Shown: one piece after another, positions 14,045 to 37,165 of the stretch
How positions within the stretch are numbered: the first letter of the stretch is position 1
Layout: every line of letters begins with the position of its first letter
From: a bacterium
GTDB taxonomy: Bacteria > 4484-113 > JAFGCY01
Direction of reading: 5' to 3'
Length of the DNA: 64,000 nt
NCBI GenBank assembly: GCA_016932385.1
Contig: JAFGCY010000058.1
Location: forward strand, 1 to 64,000
The notes under the pieces: model-generated
What the model saw: only the letters and a program-made list of their open reading frames with translations
Told to the model about the DNA's origin: nothing
The model's database searches: none
Made by a program: the position numbers and the translations under genes

Positions 14045-14791
14045 ATGAGGAAAGCTGGTTTTATAGTTCTATTTCTAATTGCAATTCTATACGTATCAGT
14101 TGTAGGAGCAGATGATTCCAAGTATATAGAGGAGTCTTGTACCGCCGGAGGAAATTGCGGATCACCGAGAGCCGGTATGCGCTATCTGGCTTTTGAGAAA
14201 GTGCTAACCGCTAGGGGATTGCTGGAAATATATAGCGAAAGCATGGATGTACTGAAAAACACGGAGTTTAATGATCCAGCGTTTGAAGGCCAGATTAATC
14301 GAACTCGAGCTGAAATTCTTGATATGGCAATTCAGGCGTATTATTTATGCGGTCCAATTGATTACTCAGACAATAGCGCTGAGCTAATGGCAGCAATTCA
14401 GGATGAGAAATCCGAACACCTGCATTACGAATGGCCGCCGAGTCTTGAAGAACTGGTCACAAGCGGGTTGCTTGATTACCTTCCCGATTCCCCGTATGAG
14501 AACTCCAGATATTTTACACAAGCGCCAGCGGATGGAGGCTTACCGGGCGATGTTATATATTGCGCTTATCCAACTGTCGAGAAAGGATATTTCCATCTCG
14601 AACCGGGGAAGCTGGAAAACTGCCTGCTATTCGTGATAGGCAGGCCCGGTGTATTTGTTAAACCACCAGAAGTGTTGACGGGCTATTTTTTAGGTGACCT
14701 GGATGAGGTTCTGCCCGATCCACCGGAAAACATCGTGTTTCTGACGGGGCAGCTGTACCCGGAAGATATTGAGCAGGATAACGCCAGCTAG
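14045..14791 (+). CDS. Secreted protein of unknown function, AT-richer than its surroundings
   Basis: N-terminal signal peptide; 'PPSLEELVTSGLLDYLPDSPYE' resembles the C-terminal region of pseudopilin-like proteins. Confidence 0.6.
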   Translation: MRKAGFIVLFLIAILYVSVVGADDSKYIEESCTAGGNCGSPRAGMRYLAFEKVLTARGLLEIYSESMDVLKNTEFNDPAFEGQINRTRAEILDMAIQAYYLCGPIDYSDNSAELMAAIQDEKSEHLHYEWPPSLEELVTSGLLDYLPDSPYENSRYFTQAPADGGLPGDVIYCAYPTVEKGYFHLEPGKLENCLLFVIGRPGVFVKPPEVLTGYFLGDLDEVLPDPPENIVFLTGQLYPEDIEQDNAS

Positions 14792-14904
14792 TGAACTAAT
14801 GGCCGTCAGGCACAGCAGTTAACAGGCATGGCGCAAGCCGATTGCGGAGTAATGCACTTTGTTCTTGCGCCGGCCAGCGGTGCGTGGTATATTCACTAGC
14901 CCTT

Positions 14905-14981
14905 GGGCGCATAGCTCAGTTGGCTAGAGCGCATGCTTCACACGCATGAGGTCACAGGTTCGAATCCTGTTGCGCCCACCA
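14905..14981 (+). tRNA. tRNA-Val (CAC), CCA encoded
   Basis: GGGCGCATAGCTCAGTTGGCTAGAGCGCATGCTTCACACGCATGAGGTCACAGGTTCGAATCCTGTTGCGCCCACCA folds as a cloverleaf; anticodon loop TTCACAC. Confidence 0.95.
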
Positions 14982-25561: not shown

Positions 25562-26059
25562 ATGGATTGGAATAAAGCAGACTGGAATGACGAGAACACG
25601 GCCGAGGTAATTGAAGCCCACCTTAATATGTCGGAGGAGCAGCTCTTTGCGGCCTTGGCTTATTCAACGGATTGGAAGCAATTCAAGCAGGCCACCGGAT
25701 TCATCGCACCGGTTTGGGTCTGGCCGCGGCATGACATCAGCTTCGGCCGGGAAGACGAGAGTGACCAAAGAAAAGACATTACGCGTATGGCGGAACTGGG
25801 CAGGCAGATCTGGGACCTGATTACCGATCGCATCTACCAGGCGGTCTGCGTCAAATGGGAGTACTGCAAGAAACGAGATGATCCGAGGTTCAACACACCC
25901 GCGGCAATAATCATCGCCGTCACGGATATTATTGTCGGCCTGCAGATAGGATTCACGCCCGTGACAGCGGCGTCGCTAATAGTGAGACTCGGGCTCGACA
26001 AGTTCTGCAAGTGCGACACCGAAAAAAGCCAGTCCGAGCCGGCGAGCGTGCCGCTCTAA
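25562..26059 (+). CDS. Hypothetical protein
   Basis: 165-aa ORF with ATG; hydrophobic C-terminal half (AAIIIAVTDIIVGLQIGF). Confidence 0.55.
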   Translation: MDWNKADWNDENTAEVIEAHLNMSEEQLFAALAYSTDWKQFKQATGFIAPVWVWPRHDISFGREDESDQRKDITRMAELGRQIWDLITDRIYQAVCVKWEYCKKRDDPRFNTPAAIIIAVTDIIVGLQIGFTPVTAASLIVRLGLDKFCKCDTEKSQSEPASVPL

Positions 26060-33341: not shown

Positions 33342-34076
33342 TTACAGCACAACGCTGACATTCGCCGCCACCAGCAGCACGCCCGCCAATGCCAGCAACA
33401 CCAGCACGGCGCGTCGGAACAGTTGCTCGTTGACCCGTTTGGCCAGGCGGATGCCGGTGATGGTGCCGGCGATCACAAACAGCGTCCAGACCCCCGCCAG
33501 CAGCAGTACGCGCCCGGTCAGCATCCCGCCGGCGAAAAACATCGCGGTGCCGACCAGGTTCACCGACACGAAATACGCGGCGATGCTGGCGCGGAAGGCG
33601 TCCTTCACCTGGCGTTGGCTAGCCAGGAAGATGATCACCGGCGGGCCGTTGAGCGACGTCGAGCCGCCGAGGATGCCGCTAACGAGCCCGGTCGGCAGCA
33701 TCACGGCGAACTTCTGCGGCAGCCGCGGGGTCCAGCCGGAGAGCATGAACAACGCAATGCCGACGACGATTGCGCCGATGCCCGCTTTGATCCAGGCGGA
33801 GTCGAGGCTTTTCAGCAGGTAGATGCCGAGCGGAATGCCCACGATGCCGCCGGCGACCAGCGGCCAGACCTGACGCCAGTCGATCCTGCGCCGCGCCTCG
33901 TAGCTGACGGCGACGTTGTTGACCAGGCTGACCAGCACCTGCACCGGCGTCAGCACCACCGGCGGCACGAAGCTGACCATCAGCGGCACGGTGGTCAGCG
34001 AGAGCCCGAACCCGGACAGCCCCTGCACCACGCCGCCCAGGAACAGGATCACGCCGCCGAGAATGATTTCCTGCAC
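33342..34076 (-). CDS. Sulfite exporter TauE/SafE family protein
   Basis: LGGVVQGLSGFGLSLTTVPLM, GILGGSTSLNGPPVIIFLA, multiple TM segments. Confidence 0.88.
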   Translation of the reverse strand: MQEIILGGVILFLGGVVQGLSGFGLSLTTVPLMVSFVPPVVLTPVQVLVSLVNNVAVSYEARRRIDWRQVWPLVAGGIVGIPLGIYLLKSLDSAWIKAGIGAIVVGIALFMLSGWTPRLPQKFAVMLPTGLVSGILGGSTSLNGPPVIIFLASQRQVKDAFRASIAAYFVSVNLVGTAMFFAGGMLTGRVLLLAGVWTLFVIAGTITGIRLAKRVNEQLFRRAVLVLLALAGVLLVAANVSVVL

Positions 34077-34352
34077 CTGCCAAGGCTACACCATGAACGG
34101 CCCGTTCAGGAAAGAAGATGGATATGCAATTTTCAGGTTGCTGGTTGACCCATTCATCGCTGGATACACAGCCGGTAATCCATGCGATGGTGCCTTCAAA
34201 CATAAATCGCTACTGGTCAGAAGCCAGAACAGGAGTATAATATTGCTACGCGCTTAGTACCCGATTTTGAATATTCGATGTAGTGTTCGCTTAACCTGTA
34301 GCAGATTTTATTTTGGGATTCTTGCGATTAGCATGGCGAGGTGGGTTACACT

Positions 34353-37103
34353 ATGGTCTGGGACATTGAAGCAATTAGCAATGAGATCAGAAAGAAGATA
34401 AATAATAAAGAAAAGGTCGCTCTCAGTGATAAGGAGTATGGCGATATAAGAAGTGTTTTGGCGATTATTGGGCCACATCTCGAAAATCTCTATACGTACA
34501 AAGGTGTACTTGGAATTGGGGGATCGGGAATTGTTCTTGAATTGGTAGACATTTCACTTGGATGTCCGCGTGCATTAAAATTTCCACGTCCTATTTCAAA
34601 TCGAAGCTATAAGCACCTTCAAGAATTGGTAAAAGAAGAGATCGGCCACCTCGTTGATTTGAACCATCCAAATATTGTAAATATCATCAATGCAAAAAAC
34701 TTACGTGATTCGTATCCATATGCTATCTATATTATGATGGAAAAAGTTGGATGTGAGGAGATTTCCAGACCTATTCTCCATCTAACTTCAGCTACGCAGT
34801 TCTATCGAATGGTTGTTGATGTATCTAATGTACTGTGTCACTTGCATTCCAGTAAATCCAACGTTGTTCATCTGGATATTAAGCCGGATAATATTAAAAT
34901 CGACAAATATGGCCGGGCCGTTATGATCGATATGGGGACGTGCAAGCGTCGCGGAGAAAGCCAAGAAAATATAAACATCTATGTAACTGAGAAATTCGCG
35001 GATCCTGACCTTTTAAAAATTATTAAGGCAAGCCAGACAAAGCAAAAGGGAAATAGGCGAAGAGCACCTAAGGATGATTCGAACAGGATCAAGGGAGTTT
35101 TAAAGCGGAAGCAATTACAAAAGCAATGGGATCTAACTTCTTTTGGCTTGACGCTGTTGGATTGGCTGGGAGTAACATTGGGCCCACGACGAAGTGCCGC
35201 TCCAACTACTGCCAGTAACGCGTTTTGCCGGAGCCTGTCCGATTATGAAAGGAAGTACTATGTGCTGGTTGCCGCTAGGCTGTTGGCGCATTGCGGATTG
35301 ATTGGCTTATATAAAAGCCTTGGTTTGAATGAGGATATCGTAAAATCGATAAGGATCGAGACGGCGGAAGAGCTAAATGATGTCCTTAAGCGACTGAAAG
35401 ATGATTCAAATCCGTTATTGGGCATCAAGGAAATCAGCGATAAGAGCTGTGGTTCTCTCTATATCGGACCCGGCATGTATGTTCCAAGAACAAATGCATT
35501 GCTCTCAATTATCGAACATCGATACTTCAAGCGATTAAATACTATATCCAAGCTGGGCTTTATGTCGCAAGTATATCGAAGCGTGAAGCACTCGCGGCGC
35601 GAACATAGCTTGGGGAAGTACTATTACACAATTAAAATAATTGAGAGCATGTACTATGATCCCTTCTCTCCGCTGTTTAAGCAAATAATTACCGAACAAA
35701 ACTTAAGATGCCTAATCATGGCCGCACTGATTGATGATATTGGACAATATCCTTTAGCCTTTCATTTTGAAGACATTCCTGAAACAGAGGAAGTCTTTAA
35801 TCATCGAGAGAATTCCGTTAATATTATTAAGAGAGACATTGTTAGTAATCAATACATATTAAGTAAAACATTCGAAGATTGGAGAATCACAGATGATCAA
35901 GAAAAAAAAGATATCGTGAAGCAGATTGTTGAGCTGATTTCGGAGAACCAGGTTAAGCTAAAAGAAAAGATTCCATATTTGACAATACTACTGAAGTCAA
36001 TTATTAGATGGCCAGCCAGTGCCCAACTAATAGAATCTCTGCAACGAGATGCCAAACAGGCTAATATTAGATATGCCGATTGCATTGATGTCGACAATAT
36101 TATAAGGTTCCTTACTGTTATATTGAAGGATACCGGTAGGGTTAATGTGGAGCACTTAAGCATGGGTATCCATGCGAAAGGGCGAGTCGCGGCAGAGATG
36201 ATGATCTTCGCTCGTTACGCGATGTATTCACAGGTGTACTGGCACCATGCCGTTCGCTGTCAGGATGCGCTGCTGACCAGGGCCGTAGTAGCGCTCCTGG
36301 AGAGCAAGAATGAGAATGCTAGGAAGGCATTCAAAGCCAAGTTTCTGAAATACGTAAACTCGATTCCAGATATTTTATACAGCAACCGAAGTTCAGGAGC
36401 AAACGGTGAGGTCACTTACGTAGCTTCAGGACTGTGTCCAACTGATGTAGCTGTCTTGAAGTTAATAAAGGAAAGTATGAAAGGTATGAAGGAAGCGAGT
36501 TTAATAGACTATATCGAGGAGAGAAACTTATATGACCGCCTGTGGTTGTGCAATACGGAAAGCCATGGCCAGCGGAAGTGGAAAGAGATAGTAGGTTTAT
36601 GGGATCAAACAACCTTAAGCAACATGCACGTGATTAACGAAAAGCTTGAGAGAGAGGTACTACAGCATCTGAGAAAATGCAAGCAACATAAGCTAGTAAG
36701 GCAAATCAAGGAGTTGAACCAGCCGTGGCTGGTGATCGATATACTGCGGCGCAGAAGGTCGAGGTACCTGAATGCGACTAACTTGCATTATGTGCTGGAA
36801 GGCGAAAGGCGTCGAAACGAATCGACGTTCAATGTGACGGGAGAGCAGCGGGAATGCGAGGTCTGGAAAAATTATGGTGAGCCAATCAGGGACAAGGCCG
36901 GCACGATCAGAGTCTACGGCCATCCCAATGTAGTTGATTCCATTCGGCAGGTTATCAGCAATAAAGATGGTATCAAAATCTTGATCGAGACAATCAAAGC
37001 AGCTATCAAGGTTAAATCCCAAAGCGCTAGGAAAGCTACTCCGGGAAAAGCCCAAAAAACTCAGCCGGTGAGCAGAAGCAGGTTGAGTAGCAACGGCGAT
37101 TAG
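34353..37103 (+). CDS. Ser/Thr protein kinase fused to HD-domain (SAMHD1/dNTPase-like) phosphohydrolase
   Basis: Kinase: GIGGSGIVLEL, RALKF, VVHLDIKPDNIKI, VMIDMGTCK. HD region: RLNTISKLGFMSQVYRSVKHSRREHSLGKYY, LIMAALIDDIGQYPLAFHFE, CIDVDNIIRF. AT-rich. Confidence 0.78.
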   Translation: MVWDIEAISNEIRKKINNKEKVALSDKEYGDIRSVLAIIGPHLENLYTYKGVLGIGGSGIVLELVDISLGCPRALKFPRPISNRSYKHLQELVKEEIGHLVDLNHPNIVNIINAKNLRDSYPYAIYIMMEKVGCEEISRPILHLTSATQFYRMVVDVSNVLCHLHSSKSNVVHLDIKPDNIKIDKYGRAVMIDMGTCKRRGESQENINIYVTEKFADPDLLKIIKASQTKQKGNRRRAPKDDSNRIKGVLKRKQLQKQWDLTSFGLTLLDWLGVTLGPRRSAAPTTASNAFCRSLSDYERKYYVLVAARLLAHCGLIGLYKSLGLNEDIVKSIRIETAEELNDVLKRLKDDSNPLLGIKEISDKSCGSLYIGPGMYVPRTNALLSIIEHRYFKRLNTISKLGFMSQVYRSVKHSRREHSLGKYYYTIKIIESMYYDPFSPLFKQIITEQNLRCLIMAALIDDIGQYPLAFHFEDIPETEEVFNHRENSVNIIKRDIVSNQYILSKTFEDWRITDDQEKKDIVKQIVELISENQVKLKEKIPYLTILLKSIIRWPASAQLIESLQRDAKQANIRYADCIDVDNIIRFLTVILKDTGRVNVEHLSMGIHAKGRVAAEMMIFARYAMYSQVYWHHAVRCQDALLTRAVVALLESKNENARKAFKAKFLKYVNSIPDILYSNRSSGANGEVTYVASGLCPTDVAVLKLIKESMKGMKEASLIDYIEERNLYDRLWLCNTESHGQRKWKEIVGLWDQTTLSNMHVINEKLEREVLQHLRKCKQHKLVRQIKELNQPWLVIDILRRRRSRYLNATNLHYVLEGERRRNESTFNVTGEQRECEVWKNYGEPIRDKAGTIRVYGHPNVVDSIRQVISNKDGIKILIETIKAAIKVKSQSARKATPGKAQKTQPVSRSRLSSNGD

Positions 37104-37105
37104 CT

Positions 37106-37165
37106 TTAGCTACTGTGGATCACGCCAACGAGGATCAGCTCGGCCGCCGGTGTCAGCTCCGCCAT
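37106..37165 (-). pseudogene. Truncated ORF translationally coupled to the S9 peptidase gene
   Basis: ATG overlaps the S9 stop (TGATG); reads MAELTPAAELILVGVIHSS then TAA at the edge of the AT-rich island. Confidence 0.5.

What the first reader, a model, noticed from the sequence alone, without database searches (positions are those of the whole stretch)
34353..37103. Ser/Thr kinase-HD phosphohydrolase fusion in an AT-rich island
A 917-aa protein combines an apparently active Hanks-type kinase (P-loop, HLDIKPDN, DMG) with a SAMHD1/dGTPase-like HD region. In the HD region the first His (EHSLG) is present but the canonical HD pair reads DD (LIDDIGQYP), and a later Asp (IDVDNIIRF) is retained. 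Composition is strikingly AT-rich relative to both sides, indicating recent acquisition. A kinase joined to a nucleotide-pool enzyme is a plausible anti-phage or stress-response effector.
Basis: partly seen in the sequence, partly recalled or inferred. Interest (0 to 1): 0.75.

Follow-up and report, generated by a model that had tools for sequence, protein, structure and literature searches.

The report
Kinase fused to inactivated SAMHD1-like domain
A bacterium has picked up one foreign gene whose protein joins a probably active protein kinase to a copy of the antiviral enzyme SAMHD1 that has lost its catalytic site, so the enzyme half now most likely works as a switch or scaffold for the kinase; three relatives elsewhere keep the enzyme half intact, and all three sit next to likely phage-defence genes.

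Summary
The ORF is real (34353-37103 +, 916 aa). It is the only gene in a sharply bounded AT-rich insert (34110-37120, 42.6% G+C against 65% around it). The N-terminal third is a Hanks-type kinase with its key catalytic residues. The rest (about 370-870) has the SAMHD1/EF1143 fold by sequence and by AlphaFold/Foldseek. 'IDVDNIIRF' is not the metal Asp; that Asp is Gln558. His206, His210 and His215 (SAMHD1 numbering) are Asp, Gln and Phe. All 79 comparable homologues keep the metal ligands, so the window protein is a pseudo-phosphohydrolase, not a kinase joined to a nucleotide-pool enzyme. I found three distant fusions with the same order of parts: JAPPKI010000047.1 (27% identity over 834 residues), a Phycisphaerales genome, and DAOURK010000086.1. 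All three keep the HD metal site and lie beside PADLOC-type or DUF4062 genes. Kinase-free HD homologues on plasmids lie beside Septu and a CBASS cyclase. The window copy itself sits among housekeeping genes. Best reading: a horizontally acquired, probably defence-related kinase regulated by a dead SAMHD1-type scaffold. What the scaffold senses, and the anti-phage role, are inferred. No paper or family model found describes the fusion.

The parts
34110..37120 (.). AT-rich single-gene insert (42.6% G+C inside, 65% outside)
   Evidence: two-boundary likelihood fit; composition profile
34214..34241 (+). promoter-like site TGGTCA-16-TATAAT, about 110 nt upstream of the ATG, inside the insert
   Evidence: consensus scan, (not evidence of function)
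34353..37103 (+). 916-aa kinase / pseudo-SAMHD1 fusion protein
   Evidence: uninterrupted frame; SD-like AGGTGG before the ATG read directly
34491..35342 (+). Hanks-type Ser/Thr kinase domain (residues about 47-330)
   Evidence: Pfam PF00069 47-225 E 5.5e-19; kinase half aligns with L099 to residue 311
34512..34529 (+). glycine-rich loop GIGGSG (residues 54-59)
   Evidence: read directly
34869..34892 (+). catalytic loop HLDIKPDN (residues 173-180)
   Evidence: D175 and N180 invariant in the four fusions
34929..34937 (+). DMG metal-binding motif (residues 193-195, in place of DFG)
   Evidence: D193 and G195 invariant in the four fusions
35460..36962 (+). SAMHD1/EF1143-fold module, HD core plus C-terminal domain (residues about 370-870)
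35733..35738 (+). degenerate HD pair: Asp461-Asp462 in place of His-Asp (SAMHD1 H206 D207)
   Evidence: 79 of 79 homologues have His at this place
36024..36026 (+). Gln558 in place of the metal-binding Asp (SAMHD1 D311)
   Evidence: 79 of 79 homologues have Asp; aligned to 2O6I
36150..36269 (+). best-conserved part of the HD module (residues 600-639, holds AEMMIFARYAMYSQVYWHHAVR)
   Evidence: 50-65% identity to L099 here, against 0-40% elsewhere in the HD core

Best explanation
A horizontally acquired one-gene cargo encodes a Ser/Thr kinase whose large C-terminal half has the fold of a SAMHD1/EF1143-type dNTP triphosphohydrolase but has lost the catalytic metal site. The likely working is that the pseudo-phosphohydrolase acts as an oligomerising regulatory scaffold. 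When it binds its ligand (a changed nucleotide, nucleic acid or a phage or host protein), it changes the state of the kinase, which phosphorylates host targets and halts growth or phage replication. Shown here: the two domains and their order, the loss of the metal site, conservation of the architecture in three distant fusions with intact HD sites, and foreign composition. Inferred: kinase activity, regulation of the kinase by the dead domain, the ligand, and a defence role.
For: Kinase with catalytic Lys, Asp, Asn and Asp present. SAMHD1-family fold over about 530 alignment columns, TM-score 0.70 by the length of EF1143 4LRL. Only the window copy among the homologues that cover the sites lacks the metal ligands, and the other conserved positions it has lost include pocket residues, while residues 600-639 stay 50-65% identical to L099. 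One continuous alignment with L099 over residues 26-859, E 5e-82, so the fusion is an inherited unit in at least that pair. The relatives' neighbours are defence-type: PD-T4-4/PDC-M47-like ATPase, shortened PDC-S02, DUF4062; kinase-free homologues lie by a type IIG R-M gene, Septu and a CBASS cyclase. Control: in four of the closest kinase-free planctomycete loci, seven of eight neighbours tested have no PADLOC hit, and the eighth is an ABC exporter. The kinase halves of three of the fusions hit PADLOC PD-T4-6 and MAD6 models. Precedents: the dead HD of RelA is a switch for its synthetase (PMC8012599), and the Clover HD dGTPase senses dTTP during phage infection (PMC12265719).
Against: No defence gene next to the window copy. 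The residues that bind guanine in SAMHD1 allosteric site 1 are also changed (Q142K, R145N), so nucleotide sensing is not supported by residues. No APE motif is evident in the kinase. PADLOC kinase hits are generic to Hanks kinases. No close homologue exists in the collections searched, so selection on either half cannot be measured.
Confidence: 0.45

Rival explanations
1. A true two-enzyme effector: the kinase and an active dNTP triphosphohydrolase work together, with a changed metal site (Asp for His) still able to bind metal.
For: First His (H418) and the Asp of the HD pair (D462) remain; relatives have intact sites; Asp can in principle ligate metal.
Against: Two of four metal ligands, H210 and H215 are gone, and pocket residues at the Q149 and Y315 positions too. 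In SAMHD1, H206R/D207N and D311A are inactive and H210A loses substrate binding (PMC7045340). No other gene of the genome matches the HD region, so no live partner of this family is seen at that sensitivity.
Confidence: 0.07
2. A regulatory kinase not concerned with phage: an acquired stress or signalling kinase whose HD-like half is a docking scaffold.
For: Housekeeping surroundings of the window copy; Hanks kinases are common signalling proteins in bacteria.
Against: All three fusion relatives have defence-type neighbours; isolated foreign gene with its own promoter-like site, typical of mobile cargo.
Confidence: 0.3
3. A decaying insert: the fusion arrived active and the HD half is degenerating without function.
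For: The window HD has the most changed conserved columns of the set (10 of 25); no close relatives.
Against: 916 codons without a stop or frameshift; kinase motifs intact; residues 600-639 strongly kept; substitutions cluster in the active site rather than everywhere.
Confidence: 0.15

Closest known systems
SAMHD1 / EF1143 / COG1078-type HD dNTP triphosphohydrolases
   Same: fold over HD core and C-terminal domain; first His and one Asp of the motif
   Different: metal site lost (H206D, H210Q, H215F, D311Q), allosteric site 1 changed, N-terminal kinase added
Defence-associated Hanks kinases (PD-T4-6, Stk2, MAD6, PglW, PfkA of KKP)
   Same: Hanks-type kinase fold and motifs; PADLOC PD-T4-6 models match the fusions at E 1e-18 to 1e-28
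   Different: those models align only to the kinase part; curated NCBIfam cut-offs are not reached
Clover (CloA dGTPase with CloB NTase)
   Same: HD-family nucleotide enzyme used as an infection sensor in phage defence (PMC12265719)
   Different: CloA is catalytic and the paper's text names no kinase; no CloB-like gene next to the window gene
RelA pseudo-hydrolase HD domain
   Same: inactive HD domain kept as a regulator of a second catalytic domain (PMC8012599)
   Different: a different HD family and a different partner enzyme

Membership tests
Hanks-type Ser/Thr kinase (PF00069) | score above the curated Pfam cut-off | tested here: met
   69 bits against 31.7
Hanks-type Ser/Thr kinase (PF00069) | catalytic Lys, HxDxKxxN, DxG | tested here: met
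   K76, HLDIKPDN, DMG
Hanks-type Ser/Thr kinase (PF00069) | phosphotransfer activity | not testable with these tools
   needs a purified protein
SAMHD1/EF1143 HD dNTPase | fold of HD core plus C-terminal domain | tested here: met
   Foldseek E 2e-12, TM 0.70 to 4LRL
SAMHD1/EF1143 HD dNTPase | H...HD...D metal ligands | tested here: not met
   H, D-D, Q
SAMHD1/EF1143 HD dNTPase | catalytic H210 and H233, neighbouring H215 | tested here: not met
   H210 is Gln and H215 is Phe; the H233 position is His
SAMHD1/EF1143 HD dNTPase | allosteric site 1 D137, Q142, R145 | tested here: not met
   Glu, Lys, Asn; also changed in L099 and L046
PD-T4-6 defence kinase | PADLOC model match over the whole protein | tested here: not met
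   only the kinase part aligns
Clover | dNTPase gene paired with an NTase gene | tested here: not met
   neighbours are TauE permease and S9 peptidase

The most novel reading that the evidence does not exclude
The four proteins belong to an undescribed family of bacterial immune kinases built on a SAMHD1-type module. The ancestral form couples a live dNTPase to a kinase, and the window lineage has turned the dead dNTPase into a pure infection sensor that fires the kinase.
Probability: 0.25. Interest if true: 0.75.

Novelty: new variant of a known kind. Interest (0 to 1): 0.55.

Why it matters
SAMHD1 is a central antiviral enzyme of animals, regulated by phosphorylation. A bacterial protein that fuses a kinase to the same fold, with some members apparently live and one dead, would give a natural series for testing how a dNTPase becomes a signalling module, and would add a kinase branch to nucleotide-based phage defence.

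Tried and rejected
Close homologues of the window protein: none found in genome contigs, viral contigs, plasmids or phages. Long HD-containing open frames in genomes of G144's phylum (G491, G662, G648, G531, G650, G570, G582 and others) were fetched and gave no kinase match; the long frame of G255 also shows no such fusion on reading its ORFs. Flanking direct repeats as insertion scars: only a 19-nt, 84% match at 34046 and 37117, not convincing. Empty site in relatives: flank DNA and gene order are not conserved, so it cannot be shown. Tree of HD domains: single origin of the four fusions neither shown nor rejected (p-AU 0.30; long branches). Literature searches for such a fusion returned nothing on it; the library lacks most subscription journals.

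Full report
What is there. One uninterrupted ORF, 34353-37103 (+), encodes 916 aa. It fills a sharply bounded AT-rich stretch: a two-boundary fit puts the edges at 34110 and 37120, 42.6% G+C inside and 65% outside, and no 2,750-base stretch of the window outside it is below 53.9%. Third-position G+C is 46% against 75-89% in four other genes of the window, and codons such as AGA, AGG, TTA and ATA are common only here. A promoter-like site lies inside the stretch at 34214. The neighbours are a TauE permease and an S9 peptidase. So it looks like one foreign gene with its own start signals. An empty site could not be shown because gene order is not conserved in relatives.

The kinase. Pfam Pkinase matches residues 47-225 at E 5.5e-19. 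The glycine loop, Lys76, HLDIKPDN and DMG are present; Lys76, Asp175, Asn180, Asp193 and Gly195 are invariant in the alignment of the four fusions, although that alignment is unsure in the N-lobe of the most distant one. An active kinase is therefore likely, though untested. I see no clear APE motif.

The second half. Sequence (HD_assoc_2 E 6.5e-9; EF1143 and others by phmmer) and an AlphaFold model from 16 sequences (pTM 0.69, mean pLDDT 68.7) agree: Foldseek's best PDB matches are SAMHD1 relatives, TM-score 0.70 to Enterococcus EF1143 (4LRL, 3IRH). The alignment columns run well past the HD core, so residues about 370-870 probably form one SAMHD1-type module. The L099 model (pTM 0.74) gives the same result.

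The active site is dead. In 80 homologues aligned together, every one that covers the sites keeps the metal ligands H167, H206, D207 and D311 and also H215; 78 of 79 keep H210 (SAMHD1 numbering). The window protein has H, D, D and Q at the metal ligands, Q at 210 and F at 215. Its further changes at conserved columns include the Q149 and Y315 pocket positions (the assignment of those columns to SAMHD1 numbers is mine). In SAMHD1, H206R/D207N and D311A abolish activity and H210A loses substrate (PMC7045340). By contrast residues 600-639 are 50-65% identical to L099. That pattern fits a domain kept for its scaffold, not its chemistry. Allosteric site 1 (D137, Q142, R145; PMC8177086) is also changed in the window protein and in L099, so I do not claim it senses GTP or dNTPs. 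A caution: the homologues were gathered by tools that favour conserved motifs, so other degenerate members may be under-counted.

Relatives. No close homologue exists in the collections searched. The first fusion relative came from a search of 385 genomes with the HD region (L046 = L051 = L102, DAOURK010000086.1, 942-aa ORF). A two-sequence alignment then led to two more. L099 (JAPPKI010000047.1, 889-aa ORF) aligns over residues 26-859 of the window protein at 27%, E 5e-82. L100 (Phycisphaerales, DBZL01000055.1, 798-aa ORF) is more distant, like L102. All three keep the HD metal site. The fusion is rare: 98 of 385 diverse genomes matched the HD profile, and only G273 is a confirmed kinase fusion there. 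HD trees neither show nor reject one origin of the four; for the window and L099 the continuous alignment makes common descent of the fusion the simplest reading.

Neighbourhoods. L099 is followed by an AAA_15/AAA_21 ATPase that scores E 1e-33 to PADLOC PD-T4-4_A and 3e-27 to PDC-M47A, then a gene with a weak PDC-M47B match. L051 has a shortened PDC-S02 gene upstream. L100 has a DUF4062 gene, which PADLOC does not list. Kinase-free homologues lie by a type IIG restriction-modification gene (L050) and, on Rhizobium and Sphingobium plasmids, by Septu genes, with a CBASS cyclase nearby in Rhizobium. As a small control, eight neighbours of four close planctomycete kinase-free homologues gave no PADLOC match except one ABC exporter. 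PADLOC matches to kinases and ATPases are partly generic, the fusion loci are only three, and the window copy has no such neighbour, so the defence role is a moderate inference.

How it probably works. A kinase controlled by a dead SAMHD1-type scaffold. Two precedents make this plausible: the inactive HD domain of RelA switches its synthetase (PMC8012599), and the Clover HD dGTPase detects infection through dTTP (PMC12265719). The order live dNTPase fusion first, dead copy later is suggested by the intact sites of all three relatives, and is inference.

Novelty. Both halves are known families; their fusion, and a dead SAMHD1-type module attached to a kinase, are not described in any family model searched or paper found. 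I call it a new variant of a known kind.

Noticed in passing
L120:7478-10367, L121:6060-8959, L122:5454-7194 (Rhizobium, Sphingobium and Methylocystis plasmids): A recurring two-gene unit: a small ORF of about 134 aa (no Pfam match in L120 and L121) followed by an HD protein of about 825 aa (438 aa and overlapping an IS6 transposase gene in Methylocystis). Two copies lie next to Septu genes; the third is near a 7-cyano-7-deazaguanine synthase and a restriction endonuclease. Possibly an unnamed defence system.
   Followed up: partly
L050:13702-18649 (G089): A 525-aa AT-rich HD protein with intact motif directly downstream of a type IIG restriction-modification gene; its alignment with the window protein runs on into the C-terminal region.
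   Followed up: partly
window 25562-26059: Orphan ORF of 165 aa in a patch of about 50% G+C; no Pfam or PHROG match.
   Followed up: partly
window 14045-14981: AT-rich 248-aa ORF with a signal-like start, immediately before a tRNA-Val gene in a 48% G+C patch; may be another acquired gene.
   Followed up: no
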